From Paeniglutamicibacter psychrophenolicus (GTDB lineage Bacteria > Actinomycetota > Actinomycetes > Actinomycetales > Micrococcaceae): a stretch of DNA of 64,000 nucleotides. The notes below the pieces were generated by a model, which searched no databases, was not told the DNA's origin, and saw only the letters and a list, made by a program, of their open reading frames with translations. The translations under genes and the position numbers were made by a program. The stretch's first letter is position 1. Every line of letters starts with the position of its first letter. Location: contig NZ_JAGIOE010000001.1 in NCBI RefSeq assembly GCF_017876575.1, positions 620,001 to 684,000 of the forward strand, read 5' to 3'. This document shows positions 17,092 through 26,832 of this stretch, in pieces.

Positions 17092-18177
17092 CTAGCGTTC
17101 GATGTCGCCGCGGATGAAGGCCTCGACCTTTTCCTTGGCGATGTCGTCGTTGAACTGCTCCGGCGGGGACTTCATGAAGTATGACGACGCCGAGACCAGC
17201 GGTCCGCCGATTCCGCGGTCAAGGGCGATCTTGGCGGCACGCACGGCGTCGATGATGACACCGGCGGAGTTCGGGGAATCCCACACCTCGAGCTTGTACT
17301 CCAGGGACACCGGGGCGTCGCCGAAGTTGCGGCCCTCAAGGCGGACGAAGGCCCACTTGCGGTCATCGAGCCAGGCGACGTAGTCGGACGGGCCGATGTG
17401 CACGTCGTCCGCTTCCAGCTTGGCCGAGGTGTTGGAGGTGACGGCCTGGGTCTTGGAGATCTTCTTGGATTCCAGGCGGTCGCGCTCAAGCATGTTCTTG
17501 AAGTCCATGTTGCCGCCGACGTTCAGCTGGTAGGTGCGGTCCAGGACCACGCCGCGGTCCTCGAACAGCTTGGCCATCACCCGGTGGGTGATGGTGGCGC
17601 CGATCTGGGACTTGATGTCGTCGCCCACGATCGGGACACCCGCAGCGGTGAACTTGTCGGCCCATTCCTTGGTTCCGGCAATGAACACCGGCAGGGCGTT
17701 GACAAAGCCCACGCCGGCGTCGATGCATGCCTGGGCGTAGAACTTGGCCGCCGCGTCGGATCCGACAGGCAGGTAGCAAACCAGCACGTCGACCTTGGCG
17801 TCCTTCAGGGCCGCAACCACGTCCACCGGCTCGGCGGAGGATTCGGTGATGGTCTCGCGGTAGTACTTGCCCAGGCCGTCAAGGGTGTGGCCGCGCTGCA
17901 CGGTGATGCCCGTGGTGGCAACGTCAGCGATCTTGATGGTGTTGTTCTCGGAAGCGAGGATGGCGTCGGCCAGATCCAGTCCGACCTTCTTCTCGTCCAC
18001 ATCGAAGGCCGCAACGAACTGCACGTCGTTGACGTGGTACTTGCCGAACTGGACATGCATCAGTCCGGGAACGGCGGCCTGCGGGTCCGCGTCACGGTAG
18101 TACTGGACACCCTGGACCAACGAGGTGGCGCAGTTGCCCACGCCAACGATTGCAACCCGAATCGGATTTTCCGACAC
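17092..18177 (-). CDS. ino1: myo-Inositol-1-phosphate synthase (actinobacterial type)
   Basis: 361 residues. It converts glucose-6-phosphate to inositol-3-phosphate (1L-myo-inositol-1-phosphate), the first step toward phosphatidylinositol, mycothiol and related actinobacterial metabolites. The N-terminal NAD-binding G-V-G-N-C-A is at about residues 11-16, and the core L-N-V-G-G-N-M-D-F motif and the K-I-S-K-T-Q block follow. The length is typical of the short bacterial enzymes (the eukaryotic one is about 530). The start is ATG 18177 with GGAG about 14 nt upstream. The glycopolymer cluster is on the same strand upstream, 130 nt away. Confidence 0.95.
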
Positions 18178-18307: not shown

Positions 18308-19540
18308 TCAGGTCCGAGAGCCCCGTTCGCTCAGCCACCAACGCCGGATCCGCAACAGCATTGCCAATGCCGGACGGGGCAAGGTGGTGCGGACCCGCTG
18401 CCGGAAGGCGACCTCCTTCACCATTGCCAATTGCGCCTCTGACGTGGCCAATGTCTGGTTCGTGGCGCGCTGCGCGTAATGGGCCAGGGCCGAGGCGAAC
18501 TCCGGGCCGCGGCGGTGGAAGTAGTTCTCGCGCAACCACGCACGATTCGGGAAAGAAAAGTGCAACGAAGCCGCGTCATCTAGGGTTCCGAGCAGGCCCG
18601 AACCACGGAAAACCGAGTTGAGCATCGCATCATTGAGCCCGAAGTCGGTCAGGACCAGCACCGGCAACCCGCGGTCCACCGCCTCCAGGGCCGCGGTTGA
18701 GGAGACCGTCAGCAACGCGGAACCGGGAGCCAGCGATTTCTCCATGGGGCCCGTCACGAACTCCACATGCCCGTTCCCGATCTTCCCGGCGGCGACCAGC
18801 TCCTCCCACAGGCTGTCGTAGGGGTGGGCCTCGAGGTGGGTCTGGGGTTCCCCGGCCCGGGCACGGAGCTTGACCACGACCCGGACCGCCGGGTTCAGCC
18901 TCGCCACCTTCTCCAGGGCCAGCAGGATCTCCTGGCGCTCGGCACGCTGCACCGGGACCTTGGCCTGGGCCGCGAACACCACGGTGTCGATGGGGGATGG
19001 AGCCGGCTGCGGGAACCCCGCGGTCTTCAGGAACGGCAGCTTGGAGACCAAGACGTCGGGGCGGTGCCCGGTTTCCGCCTCCGCCAGTTGCAGGAACTCG
19101 CGGGCCTCGGCATGGGAATGCACGATGAACGCATCTCCGCTGCGCCGGTAGGCCCATCCCTTGGCGGTGGCCGGGTAGGCGACTCCGGGCAACGCCGAGA
19201 TCAGTGCGGAGGGGCGCACCGCATTGGCCCTCGAGCGCAGGAGCTTGGTGAAAAGCTCGCTGACCACCGGTCCGGTGGCCGCGGCAAAGATGATGTGCGC
19301 ATCCAGCGAGCGGTAATCCAGGGCTGCACGCGGCAGCACCGGGATCTGCACGTCCTGGAAGCAGGTGCCCGAGGTGGCGGCGGCAACCTGTTCGGGCGTC
19401 GGCGCGATGGGGGTGCGCACCAGCACCACGCGTCGGTCCCATTCCGGTCCCAGGGCATCGAGCGTGGTGCAGGCGAGCTTGAGGTAGGAATCCGAGTCGG
19501 CCACCGCAACGATGCTTGGCCTGGCAACGGGTGTGTTCAT
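18308..19540 (-). CDS. Putative glycosyltransferase, DUF6716-like
   Basis: 410 residues from ATG 19540, whose ATGA overlaps the stop of the preceding gene. The N-terminal half looks Rossmann-like (S-I-V-A-V-A-D-S-D-S-Y-L-K). The C-terminal half carries E-K-S-L-A-P-G-S-A-L-L-T-V-S-S-T-A-A-L-E-A, which resembles the nucleotide-sugar site of GT-B sialyltransferase-like enzymes, and a basic C-terminal tail. I recall this family (DUF6716, putative glycosyltransferase) occurring beside neuA/neuB in Micrococcaceae. It is the last gene of the nonulosonic-acid cluster. The donor is probably CMP-nonulosonic acid, by context only. Confidence 0.7.
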   Translation of the reverse strand: MNTPVARPSIVAVADSDSYLKLACTTLDALGPEWDRRVVLVRTPIAPTPEQVAAATSGTCFQDVQIPVLPRAALDYRSLDAHIIFAAATGPVVSELFTKLLRSRANAVRPSALISALPGVAYPATAKGWAYRRSGDAFIVHSHAEAREFLQLAEAETGHRPDVLVSKLPFLKTAGFPQPAPSPIDTVVFAAQAKVPVQRAERQEILLALEKVARLNPAVRVVVKLRARAGEPQTHLEAHPYDSLWEELVAAGKIGNGHVEFVTGPMEKSLAPGSALLTVSSTAALEAVDRGLPVLVLTDFGLNDAMLNSVFRGSGLLGTLDDAASLHFSFPNRAWLRENYFHRRGPEFASALAHYAQRATNQTLATSEAQLAMVKEVAFRQRVRTTLPRPALAMLLRIRRWWLSERGSRT

Positions 19541-20565
19541 GTGGGCAGCAGCTCCAGGGACGAGGACAAGTGGGAACGAAGTTCTTCCGTGGCGGCGGGC
19601 GTCCACCAGGCACCGGGAACCTGCTTGCCGATGATCCGCACGCCCGATCCGCCCAGCAGCAGCCGCAACGAGGGCAGTGCGGTGGAGGGCAGGGCGCGGA
19701 CCAATTGGCCGCGGCGCAGGGCGCGCAGGCGCATCTCGATCGGGATGGTGTGCTCGCGCACCGCGATCTTCTGGTGCGTGGCCAGCAGGCCCAGGAATTC
19801 CGGGGATTCGCGGCGGTGCGGGAAGTAGGCGACCGGCCCGTCGAGGGTCAGCGAATGCAGCCAGCGGAAGTACGGGTCCGGGTGGATCAGCCCGTCGGCG
19901 GCCATCGCGGAGCCGACCACCACGGTGGGTTCGGCGATCCGCTCGGCCACCGGCTGGGTGTTCAGCCACTCGAAGCGGTGCGATTCCAGGTGCCCGCCAA
20001 GCTCGCGGAACCTGCGCGCCACCTCCGGCTCCACCGGCAAGGCGGTGAAGACCAGAAGCCGAGAGGCCCGGGCCAGGGCGCGCAGCCGGTACCAGCTGGC
20101 AATCCCCAGCGCGCGGCGCGCCGCGTTGGGGTTGGAGCGCGGGCGCACCAGCGCTGTCGGTTCGCTGGCCACCAGCGCCCGGATGAGCCCGAGCGTGGCC
20201 AGCCCGTCGTCGATGACCACGATTTCCTGCACCGCGATGTGGCCCAGCAGTGCGCGCTGGACCCGGCCCGAGTACGCGTCCCCGGTCACCCAGCGCCGCG
20301 CGCCGGCCGATCCCGGGGCCGGGGGCACCTGTGTGGGGGGCGCGAACTCCACGCCCGCCGGTGCCCGGGCCATCAGCGTGGCCAGCGTGGCATCCAGCGT
20401 CGTGGTGCCCCCGCGCGGGTGGATGCGGCTGGAAGTGCCCAGCAGCCCGGCGCCGTGCGCCTCGATCGCGGAAAGCAGCTGCAGCGGGGACTCGACCCAG
20501 ACCTCGGCGTGGCCGAAGCGGGGTCGGGCCACGCCGGAATCCGCCCGGTACTCAGCGGGAGGCAC
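19537..20565 (-). CDS. Sialyltransferase-like glycosyltransferase
   Basis: 342 residues from GTG 20565. AGGAGGGGG lies 6 nt upstream, which decides against longer frames. It overlaps the previous gene by 14 nt and the next by 4 nt. The signature V-E-S-P-L-Q-L-L-S-A-I-E-A near the N-terminus, then E-I-V-V-I-D-D-G-L-A-T-L and Y-F-P-H-R-R-E-S, match the layout of bacterial GT52-type and polysialyltransferase enzymes (S-P-L-Q, D-D-G, Y-x-P-H-x-x-E). No signal peptide; it probably acts at the cytoplasmic membrane face during polymer assembly. The acceptor is unknown. Confidence 0.75.
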   Translation of the reverse strand: MPPAEYRADSGVARPRFGHAEVWVESPLQLLSAIEAHGAGLLGTSSRIHPRGGTTTLDATLATLMARAPAGVEFAPPTQVPPAPGSAGARRWVTGDAYSGRVQRALLGHIAVQEIVVIDDGLATLGLIRALVASEPTALVRPRSNPNAARRALGIASWYRLRALARASRLLVFTALPVEPEVARRFRELGGHLESHRFEWLNTQPVAERIAEPTVVVGSAMAADGLIHPDPYFRWLHSLTLDGPVAYFPHRRESPEFLGLLATHQKIAVREHTIPIEMRLRALRRGQLVRALPSTALPSLRLLLGGSGVRIIGKQVPGAWWTPAATEELRSHLSSSLELLPT

Positions 20566-21907
20566 GGGAGGCCCCCTCCTGCAGCGTGCGTGCCAGGCGC
20601 TGCAGCGAGCGGGTCCCGACGCGCAGCGCGCGGCGCTGCAGCCGGCGGCCCCAGTGGCGGCGGCGCCGCGGGTGCGCCCAGTGCGGGGGAAGATCCAGTG
20701 CGGCCAGCCGCCGACGCTTGAAGTGGGCGCCGAAGCGCGAGTAGTTCGCCTCCAGGAACGCCGCGGCCTCCCCGCGCAGTCCGGGCAGGTTCTCGTATTG
20801 CATGCAGTAGGCGACCGCGCGCAACAGGGGCGTGAGCTCGTCGTTCGGCCCCGCTTCCGCGGGCGTTTGGAGCTTCTGGACGAGCAGGGCATCGACGATC
20901 GAGACCGGGATGCGGTTGGAGTTCTGGTAGGGGCCCAGTTCCTGCAGCAGCTCCGCGGTGCCCACGGCGATCACCGGGGTGCCGAGCATGTACCTGGCGC
21001 TGAGCAGGGCGGTGGAGAAGCAGGAGATGACCACCAGCGGCTTCATGAGCGTGATGACGGTTTCGGCCAGCAGGTCGGTGTCCAGGATCTCGAAGCCCAG
21101 GCCCAGGGATTCGGCGCGGGCCCGCAGCTGCAGCGCTGCCGTGGGCCCCGAGCTCGGGTGCGGCTTGAACACCACGGACGAGGCCCCGGCGTCGCGGGCG
21201 GCCAGCAGCATCCGGTGGTGCAGCTCGAGTTCGGCGGCGGCATCGAGGATTCCCAGCGAGCCGAGGTACTGGCCCACCACCAGGGCGGCGCCGGGGGGCA
21301 GGTCCAGCTCGGCAGGATCCAGGCCCGCTGCAAGTTCGGCAAAGACGGCGGCCAGCGACTCGAGGCCCAGGACCTTGCGTTGCACCGGGGCCTCGAGCAG
21401 CAGCATGGGCTCGAGGCCCGGGACCAGGTCGATGTGGATGGTCTCGCGCAGGCGCTGGAGCATCTGCATCGACTGCTTGTTGCGGGTGGGGCCGTAGGAC
21501 ATCAGTCCGTCCGAGTGCACCGAGATCGGGGCGTCGAAGAAGATCCGGGCCATTGCCTGGGCTGGGTTCACCTGGATGGATTCGAGCACCAGGGACACCC
21601 GCTCCTCGCCGAGGTTCCAGCGGTGGCGCAACAACTTCTCGAAGAGCGGCAGCTCCTCGTTCCGGGGGTTGAATTGCCCGGGGCGGCGCGGCCACAGCAG
21701 CTCGCCGAGGTCCACCACGTCGTCGAAGCGCGCGGCCAGCGCATCGAACCCCGGGTTCTCGCGCAGCGGGGTGGTGATTTCTGGCATCTGGCTGCCGTTG
21801 GCCAGCACCAGGACGCGGCGGTCGGCGTCCGGGAGCAGGCCCGCATCGACCATCGCTGCCAGCGAAACGACCTGGAAGTAGGCGGAGGCCTGGATAAGTT
21901 GGATCAT
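20552..21907 (-). CDS. Polysialyltransferase-family glycosyltransferase
   Basis: 451 residues. Features of the alpha-2,8-polysialyltransferase (POLYST-like) family are H-S-D-G-L-M-S-Y-G-P-T-R-N in the middle, V-V-F-K-P-H-P-S (the K-x-H-P nucleotide-binding motif) and I-S-C-F-S-T-A-L-L-S-A-R near the CMP site. The C-terminal 60 residues are very rich in Arg and could bind membrane phospholipid or polymer. The ATG overlaps the GT2 stop by 4 nt. It probably polymerises or adds an acidic nine-carbon sugar; which sugar is not determined by the sequence. Confidence 0.78.
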   Translation of the reverse strand: MIQLIQASAYFQVVSLAAMVDAGLLPDADRRVLVLANGSQMPEITTPLRENPGFDALAARFDDVVDLGELLWPRRPGQFNPRNEELPLFEKLLRHRWNLGEERVSLVLESIQVNPAQAMARIFFDAPISVHSDGLMSYGPTRNKQSMQMLQRLRETIHIDLVPGLEPMLLLEAPVQRKVLGLESLAAVFAELAAGLDPAELDLPPGAALVVGQYLGSLGILDAAAELELHHRMLLAARDAGASSVVFKPHPSSGPTAALQLRARAESLGLGFEILDTDLLAETVITLMKPLVVISCFSTALLSARYMLGTPVIAVGTAELLQELGPYQNSNRIPVSIVDALLVQKLQTPAEAGPNDELTPLLRAVAYCMQYENLPGLRGEAAAFLEANYSRFGAHFKRRRLAALDLPPHWAHPRRRRHWGRRLQRRALRVGTRSLQRLARTLQEGASRASR

Positions 21908-22929
21908 TTGCTTCTCCCCTTGGCCGCGGCCGAAGGCAGCAGGCCGGTCAATGTCTTGCGGCGCTTGGCGTCGATTTGGGCCAACCCGTCATCCAGCAGC
22001 GGCGCGGGTATGACTGCGAGCCGCTCCGCAATGCCCTCGCGCAGAGACCGGCGCAGGGCGGGAGGGAACTGGGCAGACCGCCCCAGGTGGTGGCAGGAAA
22101 TGGCGATGAACTGGCGCAACGCCTTGGGCCCGTGGGCCTCGTGCGCCGGGTCGCCCAGCACCATGTCCAGGATTCCGGCGAAGGCGTCAAGGAAGTCCAG
22201 CTGGCGGTCGTCGAAGACCTGTGTGAGCGAGCCGGGCAGCCCGCGGCGGTAGAAGATCCCGTGGGCGTTGAGCACCGCGTAGCTTTTCGCCTTCAGGGCG
22301 AGCTCCCAGAACCAGGGCCGGTCCTCGCAGGTGCGCAGCTCCTCGTTGAACCGTGGCGCGGCGGAGCTCAGCATCTCGGCGCGGTACATGCCCGCCCAGA
22401 CCAGCGGATAGTCGATCATGGTCGCGGTGTGGATGGGCGAGATGTCGTCGGTCGGGTCCAACACGACGTTTCGGTTCGCCTGCGGGGCCCGGTACAGGGT
22501 CCGGTTCCCGCCGGTCACGCGCACGTGGTCGCAGCGCACGTAGTCCACGTCCAGTTCCTCAAGCCCGTCGGCCAGCTGGGCCAGGTGGTTGGGGGCAAAC
22601 CAGTCATCGGGATCCAGGAACACCACGAATTCGCCGCTGGCGTTTTCCAGCCCGGTGTTGCGGGCCGCGGAGACTCCGCGGTTTGCCGGGTGGGTGATGA
22701 TCCGCAGCCCCGGAAGCCCGGAGGCGAACTGGCCGGCGATTGCCGCGGTGGCATCGGTGGAGGCGTCATCGATGACCAGGACCTCGAGCTCCCGGGCGCC
22801 CAGCCGTTGGCGGGCCAGCGAGGCCAGGGTGTCGCCAATGAAGTCCTGTTGGTTCATGGCCGGGACGATGACGCTGATGCGTCCGGGGATGCGGGCCTTG
22901 GCGGAGGGACGTTCGGATGTGGAAGGCAT
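21904..22929 (-). CDS. Family 2 glycosyltransferase
   Basis: 341 residues from ATG 22929; a GTG at 22986 is in frame but lies only 4 nt past a long hairpin and is less likely. GT-A fold motifs are S-V-I-V-P-A-M-N at the N-terminus, V-I-D-D-A-S-T-D-A-T, and the metal-binding F-L-D-P-D-D-W-F. The C-terminal half (L-P-G-S-L-T-Q-V-F-D-D-R-Q, then helices) resembles GT2 enzymes of capsule and teichoic-acid-like loci. It presumably transfers the sugar that alternates with, or primes, the nonulosonic acid polymer. Confidence 0.85.
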   Translation of the reverse strand: MPSTSERPSAKARIPGRISVIVPAMNQQDFIGDTLASLARQRLGARELEVLVIDDASTDATAAIAGQFASGLPGLRIITHPANRGVSAARNTGLENASGEFVVFLDPDDWFAPNHLAQLADGLEELDVDYVRCDHVRVTGGNRTLYRAPQANRNVVLDPTDDISPIHTATMIDYPLVWAGMYRAEMLSSAAPRFNEELRTCEDRPWFWELALKAKSYAVLNAHGIFYRRGLPGSLTQVFDDRQLDFLDAFAGILDMVLGDPAHEAHGPKALRQFIAISCHHLGRSAQFPPALRRSLREGIAERLAVIPAPLLDDGLAQIDAKRRKTLTGLLPSAAAKGRSK

Positions 22930-22989
22930 GGGGATCTCGGGGTGGTCCTTAAGTCTGGAAAAGCTGGTTGGCGGCGCGGGGGCCACCTA

Positions 22990-23032
22990 GCCCCGTGGGG
23001 TGCCCGCCCCAAAGGCGGACACCCCACGGGGC
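22990..23032. terminator. Long hairpin between neuB and the GT2 gene
   Basis: Inverted repeat of about 19 bp per arm (GCCCCGTGGGGTG on the outer part, CCGCC/GGCGG inside, small loop). It lies 26 nt after the neuB stop within the same-strand cluster. No clear T run follows on the minus strand, so it may attenuate or stabilise rather than fully terminate. Confidence 0.7.
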
Positions 23033-23057
23033 TGATGCTATGCGGAAAGGCTGCGGA

Positions 23058-23951
23058 TCAGGCGTCGACGCGGCGCAGGCGGGACAGCGGTGCCAGCTCG
23101 CCCGGGAAGACCTTCTTGACGCCGTCGCCCATGGCTTCCTCGAGGATGTGGATGTCGCGGATCAGTGCCTCGAAGCCCTTGGGCTCCAGTGAGGAGGCCT
23201 GGTCCGAGCCCCACATGGTGCGGTCCAGGGTGATGTGGCGCTCGACGGTGACGGCGCCAAGGGCGACGGCGGCCAGCGAGATCTGCAGGCCGCGCTCGTG
23301 GCCCGAGTAGCCGACCGGCACCTGGTAGCGCTCCTGCAGCGTGGTGATCATGCGCAGGTTGGCCTCTTCGGGAGGCAGCGGGTAGGTGGAGGTTGCGTGC
23401 ATCATGACCAGGTTGGAAGTGCCGAGGGTTTCCACGGCCTTGTCGATCTGTTCGATGGTGGACATGCCGGTGGAGAGGATGATCGGCTTGCCGGTCTGTG
23501 CCAGGGCCTGCAGCAGCTCGATGTCGGTGACCGAGGCGGAGGCGACCTTGTGGGTCACCGCGCCCTGCTCTTCCATGAACTCGACCGAGGGGACGTCCCA
23601 CGGGGAGGCGAAGGCGTGCAGGCCCTGCGCGGCGGCGTAGCGGATCAGTTCCTTGTACTGGGCTGCATCGAACTCGACGCGGTAGCGGTAGTCCATGTAG
23701 GTCATGTCGCCCCACGGGGTGGAGCGGATCTTGTCGCGCATGTCCATCGGGGTGGAGATCTCCGGGGTGCGCTTCTGGAACTTCACGGCGTTGGCGCCGG
23801 CCTTGGCGGAGACGTCGATGAGCTGCTTGGCGATTTCCATGTCGCCGTTGTGGTTGATGCCGATCTCGCCGATGACGTAGACCTGCTGGCCGGTGCCCAG
23901 CAGCTGCTCGCCGATGGCGACGGGTGCGGTTTCAGTGGTGGTGATAGTCAT
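23058..23951 (-). CDS. neuB: N-acetylneuraminate synthase-type enzyme (NeuB), lacking SAF domain
   Basis: 297 residues. It condenses phosphoenolpyruvate with a six-carbon sugar (ManNAc, ManNAc-6-P, Man-6-P or a relative) to give a nine-carbon nonulosonic acid. The TIM-barrel motifs are all present: G-E-I-G-I-N-H-N-G-D, V-K-F-Q-K-R, A-S-P-W-D, G-Y-S-G-H-E-R-G and E-R-H-I-T-L-D-R-T-M-W-G-S-D. The usual C-terminal SAF (antifreeze-like) domain, which in classical NeuB reaches over into the partner's active site, is missing; the chain ends about 45-50 residues early. It lies 87 nt downstream of the CMP-sugar synthetase gene. Confidence 0.9.
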   Translation of the reverse strand: MTITTTETAPVAIGEQLLGTGQQVYVIGEIGINHNGDMEIAKQLIDVSAKAGANAVKFQKRTPEISTPMDMRDKIRSTPWGDMTYMDYRYRVEFDAAQYKELIRYAAAQGLHAFASPWDVPSVEFMEEQGAVTHKVASASVTDIELLQALAQTGKPIILSTGMSTIEQIDKAVETLGTSNLVMMHATSTYPLPPEEANLRMITTLQERYQVPVGYSGHERGLQISLAAVALGAVTVERHITLDRTMWGSDQASSLEPKGFEALIRDIHILEEAMGDGVKKVFPGELAPLSRLRRVDA

Positions 23952-24038
23952 GGGGACATGCCTTTCATGTGTTGCCGGACCGTTCGGGGAATCGATGGGT
24001 GAAGGTCTCGGTGAGGATTGGTGGAAAACTGTGGGGGC

Positions 24039-25268
24039 CTAGTGGGCCAGGGATGGTTCCAGTGGCCCGGAGGTCGGGGCGGATGCCGCCACGGTGCTTG
24101 GGACGGTGATTCCGGCCAGGATGAGGTCGGCTGCTTCGCGGACCGCGCCGTGTCCGCCGTTGGTGGAAAGCCGGTGCCGGGCCGCTGCATGGACCGAGTC
24201 GCGGGCGTCGGCCACGGTCAGCGGCCAGCCGACCTGGCTCATGGCGTCAAGGTCGTTCACGTCGTTGCCCAGGTAGGCGACGCGTGCCGGGTCCAGGCCG
24301 TGCCCGGCGATCCATTGGTTCAGCACGGTGGCCTTGTCCGCCACGGCCTGGGCGACGTCCACGCCGAGCTTGGCGGCCCGGGCGGTGACCACGGGGTTGG
24401 TTTCGGTGGAAAGGATCAGCAGGTGGATTCCTGCCTTCTTCAGCAGCGAGATGCCCATGCCGTCGGAACGGGAGACCCGCACCGCCTCGGTGCCGTCCTC
24501 GCTGAGGTAGGCGGTGTCTTCGGTGTGGACGCCGTCGAAGTCGGTGACCAGTGCGTCCACGTCGATCCCGGCGGCGGGCGTGTTGCCTGAAAGCCGCCAG
24601 CGGGCCAATTCCAGGTCCGCCTCGGTGTCGATGTCGATGCCGTGCTCCTCGGGGACCCGGGCCAGGGCCAAGGACCCGAAGAAGCGATGCTCCGCCTCCA
24701 GGAACCCGGCGGTGTCCATGACGTAGAACGCCCCGGTTTCGCGGAAGCGCGGCTCGCGGTCCTGTCGGCGCGGACGCCGGGCGGCGTCGTGGCCGCTGGC
24801 ATGGGCGGCGCCGGTCTCGTCGCAGCTCCAGTGGAACCCGTGGTCCGGGACCACCGCGAAGCTCACGTCCGCCGCTCCGCTGGCGACCGTGGTGATGGCC
24901 TCCTGCAGGTCCGCCGGGTCGATGACCGGCGAGGTGCATTGGATGAAGACGGTGATTTGGGGGAGTACGTCCAGGGTGCCCAGGGCGTGCAACAACACCG
25001 ATTCGCTGCTTGCGGTATCACCGGCGATATCTGCCGGGCGGTCGATGACTGTTGCACCGTGGGCCAGGGCCTCGGCCTTGATCTCCGGGTGGTCCGTGCT
25101 GACCACGACGTCGAGAACTGACGGCGTGGCAAATGCGGATTCAATGGCCCGTGCCAACAAGGTTTGGCCGCCGATCCTGCGCAGGTTTTTTAGCTTGATC
25201 CCCTTCGATCCTCCACGTGCCGGGATGATGACCAGGGTCTTTGCTTCACTGTTCGTGCTCACAACCAA
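24039..25268 (-). CDS. neuA: Fused CMP-nonulosonate cytidylyltransferase and HAD phosphatase
   Basis: 409 residues (TTG 25268, or GTG 25262). The N-terminal half is a CMP-sialate/CMP-KDO synthetase: I-I-P-A-R-G-G-S-K-G-I, K-N-L, the S-T-D-H strand, Q-C-T-S-P and R-E-T-G-A-F-Y. The C-terminal half (from about residue 235) is a KdsC-like HAD phosphatase: V-T-D-F-D-G-V (motif I), L-S-T-E (motif II region), a conserved Lys and G-N-D-V-N-D. Such fusions exist where the synthase makes a 9-phosphate that must be dephosphorylated before activation. First gene of the cluster. No UDP-GlcNAc 2-epimerase gene is seen in this window. Confidence 0.88.
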   Translation of the reverse strand: MVVSTNSEAKTLVIIPARGGSKGIKLKNLRRIGGQTLLARAIESAFATPSVLDVVVSTDHPEIKAEALAHGATVIDRPADIAGDTASSESVLLHALGTLDVLPQITVFIQCTSPVIDPADLQEAITTVASGAADVSFAVVPDHGFHWSCDETGAAHASGHDAARRPRRQDREPRFRETGAFYVMDTAGFLEAEHRFFGSLALARVPEEHGIDIDTEADLELARWRLSGNTPAAGIDVDALVTDFDGVHTEDTAYLSEDGTEAVRVSRSDGMGISLLKKAGIHLLILSTETNPVVTARAAKLGVDVAQAVADKATVLNQWIAGHGLDPARVAYLGNDVNDLDAMSQVGWPLTVADARDSVHAAARHRLSTNGGHGAVREAADLILAGITVPSTVAASAPTSGPLEPSLAH

Positions 25269-25571
25269 AGACGCTATCGGCGCGAATCAACCAGCTGGCC
25301 GCATTTAGGTTAACGGCAGGCGACAACTGCAAGGCCAGTGGGCGGCAGGCGAACCGAGCTGTGCCGATACATGTAAGGGGGGTACGCGAGACGGCGCAGC
25401 GGGTAAGGCCCTTTGCTCTAAAGGCCCAAGGTGGTCGCGCCCTGGAAGACCCCCGTGTTGCGGTCAAAAGATTCATGAACGGAATGTTGGGTGACTCTCC
25501 CGACTGACGGAAATCAGTGATCCGGATTCCGGTGATGGTTCGAGGGCTGGTCTATGGGTTGCCCCGCAAGG
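25269..25571. other. Intergenic region, neuA upstream / abi upstream
   Basis: About 300 nt between divergent genes. I see no gene. It should hold the promoter of the nonulosonic-acid cluster on the minus strand, but no clear -10/-35 pair stands out. Confidence 0.5.
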
Positions 25572-25577
25572 TATAGT
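25572..25577 (+). promoter_or_regulatory. Probable -10 element upstream of abi leader RNA
   Basis: TATAGT matches the sigma-70-type -10 consensus closely. No good -35 hexamer is seen 16-18 nt upstream. Transcription would start near 25584, just before the structured leader. Confidence 0.55.
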
Positions 25578-25583
25578 TTTAGA

Positions 25584-25629
25584 CATAAGACACCGCCCTC
25601 CTCTGACTTTTGTCACGGGGGCGGTTTTC
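25584..25629 (+). ncRNA. Structured leader RNA upstream of the Abi_2 gene
   Basis: The transcript from the TATAGT box would fold into a two-tier hairpin: ACCGCCC pairs with GGGCGGT (7 bp) and an inner T-G-A-C / G-T-C-A stem closes a TTTT loop, followed at once by TTTTC. This is terminator-like and ends only about 15 nt before the abi start codon. I recall a conserved RNA motif described upstream of abiF-type genes; whether this belongs to it must be checked with a covariance model. It could act as an RNA regulator or antitoxin of the Abi protein, or as an attenuator. Confidence 0.6.
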
Positions 25630-25643
25630 ATTTGGGGGACCGG

Positions 25644-26672
25644 TTGGCGGAGTACGACAAGAAGTTTTTGGATTTTGGTGAGCTGATTGCCAACATGAAG
25701 AAATTCGGCCTGGCTACCGGTACCGACGAGGAGGCGCTGGAGTTTCTTCGCACCCACGGCTACTTTCGTTCTGGCGGCTATCGGTATGTTTTTCGGGAGA
25801 TGCTGCCACTCACCGAGCAAGTGAGTGAGCTGCGGCAGTTTAGGTCGGACAGCTACATGGACGGCTCGAACTTGAAAGACGTCGCCAAGCTCCTTGACTA
25901 CGAGGTGAAGCTCCGTGAAGTAATGCTCAAGGGCCTGTTGGATTTTGAAGTCCGGCTACGAGGTGCCATGGCGCATGTCCTTGCCAAGCGAGATGTTTTT
26001 GGGCACCTATCCGAAGCTAGTTTGAACGAGGCAGTCTGCAACCAGCAGGCAAACATGAGCAGTCAGGCTACTAAATTCGAACTTTGGGTCGAGACTTGTA
26101 ACAAAGCGATTGAGCAGGCGAAATCGGAAGACTACATCCACCATCATTTAATGAAGTACGGTCCTCCGATTCCGGTTTGGGCGCTGCTTGAAGTACTGAG
26201 TTTTGGCAATTTGCCCTACCTGTTCGACCTTTTGAAACGTGACGATCAGCTTGCCGTAGCGCGGCTCTTTGGTGTGAAACAAGCACACCCATTCTCTGCC
26301 TGGATACGGTCCCTAATTGACTTGCGCAATTTGTGTGCGCATGGAGGCCGTGTATTCAATAGAGCTATGAAACGAAAGGTTGCCTTCAACCAATCGGCAA
26401 TCGAGCCCTTGCTATTGGGCCACCTCAGTAATCAGGCTGCGGATGCTCAATGGCTGGCCCTTCATTCGAACAAGTTGTATCCACTCGCTGCCGTTCTTGC
26501 ATATATGTTGCGTTGCCACCCCGGAAAAGCGCAGTGGCCGCTTACGTTCAGAACCCAGTCCAAGAAATTGCCTGGCTTCGTCCTCTCGCCGGACGCGAAA
26601 CCATTGCTCACTCTGGAGCACAACATGGGATTTCCTCCAGGGTGGTCGGACTTGCCGTTATGGAGTGCTTAG
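25644..26672 (+). CDS. Abi_2 (AbiD/AbiF) family abortive-infection protein
   Basis: 342 residues from TTG 25644, chosen because GGGGGA lies about 6 nt upstream. The protein has the family N-terminus (helix, L-R-T-H-G-Y-F-R-S-G-G-Y-R-Y) and the HEPN-type motif R-N-L-C-A-H-G-G-R-V-F near residue 235, the R-x(4-6)-H signature of HEPN ribonucleases. AbiD/AbiF proteins of lactococci block phage by abortive infection. The gene has visibly lower GC than its neighbours and no operon partner, both consistent with transfer. The structured leader RNA immediately upstream is a likely partner. It is complete, with no frameshift. Confidence 0.88.
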   Translation: MAEYDKKFLDFGELIANMKKFGLATGTDEEALEFLRTHGYFRSGGYRYVFREMLPLTEQVSELRQFRSDSYMDGSNLKDVAKLLDYEVKLREVMLKGLLDFEVRLRGAMAHVLAKRDVFGHLSEASLNEAVCNQQANMSSQATKFELWVETCNKAIEQAKSEDYIHHHLMKYGPPIPVWALLEVLSFGNLPYLFDLLKRDDQLAVARLFGVKQAHPFSAWIRSLIDLRNLCAHGGRVFNRAMKRKVAFNQSAIEPLLLGHLSNQAADAQWLALHSNKLYPLAAVLAYMLRCHPGKAQWPLTFRTQSKKLPGFVLSPDAKPLLTLEHNMGFPPGWSDLPLWSA

Positions 26673-26832
26673 CAGCGGGAACAAGGCTCGTCGACCCAAC
26701 GAGGCTGTGACTCCAGAAGCTGTCATGGAATAGCGTGGTGGTGAATCGCGTAATTGTTATGTGCGCAGGCTTGGGATCCCGCGCCGTACCTATGATGGAA
26801 GAACCGAATGATCGTCGACAGCAAGGAAAAAC

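What the first reader, a model, noticed from the sequence alone, without database searches (positions are those of the whole stretch)
18308..25268. Nonulosonic-acid glycopolymer cluster, possibly for Kdn-type teichulosonic acid
The cluster joins CMP-sugar synthetase fused to a HAD phosphatase, NeuB, GT2 and three sialyltransferase-like enzymes. No UDP-GlcNAc 2-epimerase is present here. A phosphatase fused to the activating enzyme fits a 9-phosphate intermediate, as in Kdn made from mannose-6-phosphate. Kdn-containing teichulosonic acids have been reported from walls of Arthrobacter-type actinobacteria; the genes for them are poorly known. This may be such a locus.
Basis: partly seen in the sequence, partly recalled or inferred. 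Interest (0 to 1): 0.75.

Follow-up and report, generated by a model that had tools for sequence, protein, structure and literature searches.

The report
Kdn wall-polymer (teichulosonic acid) gene cluster
This bacterium carries a compact six-gene operon that most likely makes the sugar Kdn and builds it into a phosphate-free wall polymer; its gene set appears to match one already linked to such a polymer in Streptomyces, so it is a well-supported new case of a known system rather than a new kind.

Summary
A six-gene minus-strand operon at 18308-25268 encodes a CMP-nonulosonate synthetase fused to a HAD phosphatase, NeuB, GT2, a PF07388 polysialyltransferase-family enzyme, an ORF without Pfam match, and DUF6716. 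Only one of the three "sialyltransferases" is shown to be such. The genome, near Paeniglutamicibacter, has no neuC; its only PF02350 protein is WecB. Kdn from mannose-6-phosphate is the best reading: NeuB lacks the SAF domain that in Neisseria positions the N-acetyl group; the HAD keeps its catalytic residues and the Glu and Lys of the Bacteroides Kdn-9-phosphate phosphatase in 59 of 64 related loci; none of 55 genomes with this NeuB has a NeuC over cut-off. It is a new member of a known kind. Fresh points: SAF-less NeuB as a possible Kdn-9-P marker, near-strict GT2/polyST co-occurrence, ORF5-DUF6716 fusions in Brevibacterium. No chemistry exists here, and a NanE leaves a Neu5Ac route open.

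The parts
24039..25262 (-). NeuA-HAD: CMP-nonulosonate (proposed CMP-Kdn) synthetase fused in frame to a KdsC/Kdn-9-P-phosphatase-type HAD domain (HAD about 24042-24581); start GTG 25262 (TTG 25268 also possible)
   Evidence: PF02348 6.7e-22; KdsC-type HAD models below cut-off; PDB 3mmz 1e-42; DxD, Lys, Asp and the Glu/Lys pair intact
23058..23951 (-). NeuB: nonulosonate synthase, 297 aa, catalytic barrel only, no C-terminal SAF/antifreeze domain; proposed Kdn-9-P synthase
   Evidence: PF03102 4.3e-78 and no SAF match; only NeuB of the genome; SAF-less branch
21904..22929 (-). GT2 glycosyltransferase, proposed to add the hexose of the repeat
   Evidence: PF00535 1.7e-34; stop overlaps the start of the next gene
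20552..21907 (-). PF07388 polysialyltransferase-family enzyme, proposed Kdn transferase of the chain
   Evidence: PF07388 1.2e-25; only member in the genome; found with GT2 in 48 of 48 full-flank loci that have it
19537..20532 (-). ORF5, no Pfam match; invariant DDG and HRR motifs; candidate glycosyltransferase; probable SCO4882 homologue
   Evidence: alignment of 39 sequences; no PDB match better than E 0.2
18308..19540 (-). DUF6716 putative glycosyltransferase, ATG overlapping the ORF5 stop
   Evidence: PF20471 1.2e-117; fused to ORF5 in two Brevibacterium loci

Best explanation
A Kdn biosynthesis and polymerisation operon. NeuB condenses mannose-6-phosphate (from the genome's ManA) with PEP to Kdn-9-phosphate. 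The HAD half of the fused protein removes the phosphate and the cytidylyltransferase half makes CMP-Kdn. The GT2 and the PF07388 enzyme then alternate hexose and Kdn to build a phosphate-free acidic chain; DUF6716 and ORF5 probably act as a pair on the linker, first residues or a side branch. An LCP ligase encoded elsewhere would attach the chain to peptidoglycan as a teichulosonic acid. Shown by sequence: the gene set, domains, intact catalytic residues, absence of neuC, shared gene content with the Streptomyces-like loci. Inferred: substrates, sugar identity, linkages, the roles of ORF5 and DUF6716, export and wall attachment.
For: Six-gene operon with overlapping starts. Own genome: one NeuB, no NeuC, a ManA and three LCP domains; its NanE sits in a catabolic-looking set with a DHDPS-family (lyase-type) gene, a ROK kinase and an ABC transporter. 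NeuC over cut-off in 0 of 55 genomes with this NeuB (56% identity or more) against 4 of 25 with only the other NeuB type, all four beside that NeuB. Strong NanE (over 150 bits) in 21 of the 55, and in 1 of 9 Streptomyces-like ones. NeuB lacks the SAF domain whose Arg314 helps place the N-acetyl group in the meningococcal enzyme (PMC6795526 passages); SAF-less NeuBs lie on one side of a branch, SH-aLRT 95. The HAD keeps DxD, Lys and Asp plus the Glu and Lys that match E56 and K67 of the Bacteroides Kdn-9-P phosphatase, the positions that are Ala in PDB 4hgq and 4hgr: 59 of 64 loci have all six. All six genes in 46 of 59 full-flank loci, among them six loci of five Streptomyces-like genomes, and in Nonomuraea. 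Order fits the names published for SCO4877-4882 in the teichulosonic-acid region.
Against: No chemistry or enzymology on this organism. NCBIfam HAD scores slightly favour KdsC over the Kdn-9-P phosphatase model, both far under cut-off (93.6 of 208, 88.6 of 180 bits). Of 64 loci three have no HAD and one a degenerate HAD; two of the three are both copies in one Streptomyces-like genome, G499. SAF loss is not required for Kdn: Serratia makes Kdn with a longer NeuB bearing an extra isomerase domain (PMC9000132 passages). The own genome and 6 of the 7 other genomes of its genus searched do hold a strong NanE, which could supply ManNAc-6-P. No exporter or linkage gene lies in the operon. One published table puts 'sialic acid synthase' against SCO4880, where my order would put NeuA at SCO4880 and NeuB at SCO4881.
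Confidence: 0.75

Rival explanations
1. Kdn is made as proposed, but the polymer is a loose capsule or exopolysaccharide, not a wall-bound teichulosonic acid.
For: PF07388 enzymes are known mainly from capsules (recalled); Kdn capsules exist in Serratia; no linkage gene in the operon.
Against: What appears to be the same gene set lies in the S. coelicolor region assigned to a wall polymer; three LCP domains in the genome; no capsule exporter in the operon (the rest of the genome was not searched for one).
Confidence: 0.13
2. N-acetylneuraminic acid by the 9-phosphate route: NanE supplies ManNAc-6-P, NeuB makes Neu5Ac-9-P, the HAD removes the phosphate.
For: A strong NanE is present here and in 6 of the 7 other genomes of the genus searched; the HAD fits any 9-phosphate; NeuB scores higher on the Neu5Ac than on the Pse model, both under cut-off (253.1 of 399.65; 213.8 of 340.25).
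Against: NanE lies among catabolic-type genes; a strong NanE is missing in 34 of 55 genomes with this NeuB (one of them, G142, shows NanE pieces); no SAF domain to read the N-acetyl group.
Confidence: 0.07
3. Another nonulosonic acid (legionaminic or pseudaminic type).
For: Of all NCBIfam models the fused protein scores best on PseF, under cut-off (109.4 of 205.7 bits).
Against: No PseB over cut-off in the genome (best 39.9 of 407.75 bits); no aminotransferase or acetyltransferase in the operon. PseC, PseG and Leg genes were not searched.
Confidence: 0.05

Closest known systems
Streptomyces coelicolor teichulosonic-acid region (SCO4873-SCO4882, of which SCO4877-4882)
   Same: Same six protein types in five Streptomyces-like genomes, where polyST-GT2 is divergent from DUF6716-NeuA-NeuB-ORF5. 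Published names fit: SCO4878 GT2, 4879 hypothetical, 4880 transferase, 4881 polysaccharide-related. Planobispora genes assigned to SCO4878, 4877, 4879, 4882 have consecutive tags, in the order GT2-polyST-DUF6716-ORF5 that I see in Nonomuraea.
   Different: Here all six run in one direction. Protein identities to the Streptomyces-like loci are 27-61%. Acyltransferase and sulfotransferase genes follow polyST in one Streptomyces-like locus; here the neighbours are ino1 and Abi_2.
Bacteroides thetaiotaomicron CMP-Kdn pathway (Kdn-9-P synthase, phosphatase, CMP-Kdn synthetase)
   Same: Same three proposed steps from mannose-6-phosphate (PMC6200933 passages); HAD shares the Glu and Lys mutated in 4hgq/4hgr.
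   Different: Phosphatase fused to the CMP-sugar synthetase here; a separate 164-residue chain there (3e81).
Vertebrate CMP-sialate synthetase, with C-terminal HAD-like domain (PDB 3ewi; mouse origin and domain order recalled)
   Same: Cytidylyltransferase followed by a KdsC-like HAD; hits to both halves.
   Different: 3ewi reads NID where this one keeps the nucleophile in DFD, and has Arg where this one has the Glu.

Membership tests
Teichulosonic-acid biosynthesis locus (S. coelicolor type) | NeuA/NeuB plus GT2, PF07388, DUF6716 and ORF5 homologues together | tested here: met
   all six within 7 kb; 46 of 59 full-flank related loci have all six
Teichulosonic-acid biosynthesis locus (S. coelicolor type) | Direct orthology to the named SCO4877-4882 genes | tested here: inconclusive
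   compared with unnamed Streptomyces-like genomes only; one has a HAD 113 of 119 identical to PDB 3mmz, recalled as Streptomyces avermitilis; SCO sequences not found in the collections used
Teichulosonic-acid biosynthesis locus (S. coelicolor type) | Kdn polymer covalently in the wall | not testable with these tools
   needs wall chemistry
Kdn-9-phosphate pathway | HAD with catalytic DxD, Lys, Asp and the Glu/Lys pair of the Bacteroides enzyme | tested here: met
   59 of 64 loci. That E56 and K67 set specificity is recalled; the Ala variants are seen
Kdn-9-phosphate pathway | NeuB uses mannose-6-phosphate | not testable with these tools
   needs enzyme assay; the SAF-less state is only consistent
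NeuC-dependent Neu5Ac pathway | Hydrolysing UDP-GlcNAc 2-epimerase (NeuC) in the genome | tested here: not met
   only WecB; NeuC over cut-off in 0 of 55 genomes with this NeuB
PF07388 polysialyltransferase family | Match over curated cut-off | tested here: met
   20552-21907: 91.2 bits, cut-off 23.3
Sialyltransferase for ORF5 and DUF6716 | Detectable profile similarity to a sialyltransferase family | tested here: inconclusive
   ORF5 against polyST E 0.005 over 112 columns, no better than ORF5 against GT2 (0.004 over 9 columns); DUF6716 against polyST 0.41. PF07922 gave no match in 396 genomes but the control also rang nowhere

The most novel reading that the evidence does not exclude
A SAF-less NeuB together with a HAD carrying the Glu/Lys pair marks a dedicated Kdn-9-phosphate pathway spread far beyond actinobacteria, so Kdn would be a common bacterial surface sugar hidden under the name 'N-acetylneuraminate synthase'. 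For it: of 11 loci L099-L109 (Chloroflexota, Omnitrophota, Doudnabacteria, KSB1, Pseudomonadota) 10 keep all six residues and one has a Gln for the catalytic Lys. Against: of the further SAF-less loci L110-L123, L125 and L133, five carry all six, six show another pattern and five have no HAD hit.
Probability: 0.4. Interest if true: 0.62.

Novelty: new member of a known kind. Interest (0 to 1): 0.42.

Why it matters
It extends what looks like a known Streptomyces wall-polymer gene set to Paeniglutamicibacter, Glutamicibacter, Arthrobacter, Brevibacterium and others, non-filamentous hosts in which the polymer, and the two uncharacterised proteins ORF5 and DUF6716, can be tested. It also offers a sequence signature that may tell Kdn loci from Neu5Ac loci, which the NCBIfam models did not separate here.

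Tried and rejected
Neu5Ac with NeuC: rejected, no NeuC. Pseudaminic acid: no PseB over cut-off. ORF5 as a GT52 enzyme: not testable, PF07922 rang nowhere, controls included; PDB profile searches of ORF5 and DUF6716 gave nothing better than E 0.2 and 0.54. The ORF5-polyST profile match looked promising: it beats 10 shuffled and 1 reversed polyST profile, but ORF5 against GT2 scores as well. Plasmid searches gave one relative with all six genes, a Nonomuraea record of 11.85 Mb filed as a plasmid. Promoter scan found nothing. No tRNA at 12000-34000.

Counts. One search replaces for actinobacterial loci: those had left out L040, L041, L043 and L045 by mistake (60 loci, 55 full flanks, 55 with the HAD residues, 42 with all six genes). 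One search uses 64 loci (41 named, 23 unnamed, NeuB identity 56-98%), five duplicates dropped after a blastn check, and L127 and L148 (second fragment in one genome) left out; 59 have 6 kb on both sides. L049/L050 and L138/L139 are pairs from one genome each. GT2 hits of 45-76 bits (L049, L051, L053, L057, L140) were counted as absent. Among the five cut loci L094 has a GT2 but no polyST in the part held, and L071 has ORF5 but no DUF6716. Searches used 80 genomes: own, 36 and 25 of the 63 matching (G066 left out), and 18 of the 79 matching. In the tree SAF was judged by length (340 aa or more), with L050 and L137 set by hand to SAF-less because their extra length is N-terminal; Pfam was run for SAF on the window protein alone.
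Full report
What is there. The region 18308-25268 is a minus-strand operon of six genes: a cytidylyltransferase fused to a HAD phosphatase, NeuB, a GT2, a PF07388 polysialyltransferase-family enzyme, an ORF without Pfam match (ORF5), and DUF6716. GT2 and polyST overlap by stop and start, as do ORF5 and DUF6716. Five of the six show a coding-type GC3 bias, and all six have homologues in many genomes. Named relatives of NeuB at 94-98% identity are Arthrobacter sp. AQ5-05, C2 and MYb227 and Paeniglutamicibacter species.

Which sugar. The genome has one NeuB and one PF02350 epimerase, WecB by NCBIfam; so no NeuC. Among 80 genomes taken, NeuC passes its cut-off in 0 of 55 with this NeuB and in 4 of 25 with only the other NeuB type, each beside that NeuB. 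A NanE is present, next to a DHDPS-family (lyase-type) gene, a ROK kinase and an ABC transporter, a catabolic-looking set. A strong NanE is found in 21 of the 55, in 7 of the 8 of the window's own genus and in 1 of 9 Streptomyces-like ones; so NanE cannot be the general source, but it could be one here. A mannose-6-phosphate isomerase is present.

NeuB. It ends after the barrel. In one search relatives of 44% identity or more run 0-27 residues past the match (four are cut by contig ends); lower down, L122 and L133 run 9 and 7, L136 matches only in part, and the other nine run 60-79. In a quick tree of 58 sequences the 50 SAF-less ones sit on one side of a branch (SH-aLRT 95), and 26 actinobacterial ones, Streptomyces-like included, form a group (95), though two other loci of the same phylum (L141, L142) fall outside it; several branches are long. 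In the meningococcal enzyme Arg314 of the SAF domain is thought to place the N-acetyl group, while the human enzyme also takes mannose-6-phosphate (PMC6795526, passages). Loss of the domain fits a substrate without N-acetyl but does not prove it; Serratia makes Kdn with a longer NeuB (PMC9000132, passages).

HAD. DxD, Lys and Asp are intact, and so are a Glu and a Lys that match E56 and K67 of the Bacteroides Kdn-9-P phosphatase; those positions are Ala in PDB 4hgq (Glu) and 4hgr (both) (the match to E56 and K67 was made by eye, as one search does not print that alignment). The comparators printed, 3mn1 (named probable yrbI), 2p9j and 3n1u, have neither; 3mmz has both; 3ewi has the Lys only. 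Of 64 loci 59 have all six residues, L144 has the four that the match covers, L051 is degenerate, and L090, L138 and L139 have no HAD. NCBIfam models do not decide between KdsC and Kdn-9-P phosphatase.

Which polymer. Of 59 full-flank loci 46 have all six genes; GT2 and polyST are both present in 48 and both absent in 11; ORF5 occurs in 50, each time with DUF6716 (the five cut loci include one GT2 without polyST). Two Brevibacterium loci have ORF5 and DUF6716 as one open frame of 743 and 727 aa. In Streptomyces-like genomes (unnamed, 6-10 Mb) polyST-GT2 is divergent from DUF6716-NeuA-NeuB-ORF5. One of them has a HAD 113 of 119 identical to PDB 3mmz, which I recall as from Streptomyces avermitilis. 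This order fits names published for SCO4877-4882 (PMC2267785 and PMC8269224, passages), except that the second paper sets 'sialic acid synthase' against SCO4880 rather than 4881. PMC13011467 (passages) calls SCO4873-4882 the PhoP-controlled teichulosonic-acid cluster, citing Ostash 2014, which is not held. The S. coelicolor polymer is described as galactose and Kdn, phosphate-free (PMC11481543, PMC7831098, passages).

Hence the mechanism: mannose-6-P to Kdn-9-P to Kdn to CMP-Kdn, then alternating transfer by GT2 and polyST, with ORF5 and DUF6716 as a coupled pair of unknown exact role, and LCP attachment (three LCP domains). The enzymatic steps are inferred from families; none is shown in this organism.

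Novelty. The kind is known; I found no description of it for this host group in the searches, in a library that lacks most subscription journals.

Noticed in passing
window 25345-26772 (gene 25554-26672, +): An AbiD/Abi_2 abortive-infection gene (PF07751 4.1e-37; PADLOC AbiD 2e-43), 52% GC against 65% for the window, lies in a stretch with no blastn match in the seven close relatives compared and no tblastn match of the gene in 64 loci. About 80 bp before the operon start are conserved with the nearest relatives.
   Followed up: partly
L095:14725-16953 and L096:13329-15509: ORF5 and DUF6716 homologues fused in one frame in two Brevibacterium species; L095 has a second, separate DUF6716 just upstream.
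   Followed up: partly
own genome C1:4315872-4317412 (L153, L156): An LCP wall-ligase domain lies about 0.6 kb before the ManA domain whose enzyme would supply mannose-6-phosphate.
   Followed up: no
L151:7597-9806: Acyltransferase (PF01757) and sulfotransferase (PF13469) genes follow polyST in a Streptomyces-like locus, possible tailoring enzymes of the polymer.
   Followed up: no
window 17092-18177: Inositol-3-phosphate synthase of the mycothiol type sits just after the operon, and this neighbourhood is kept in most Micrococcaceae loci looked at.
   Followed up: no
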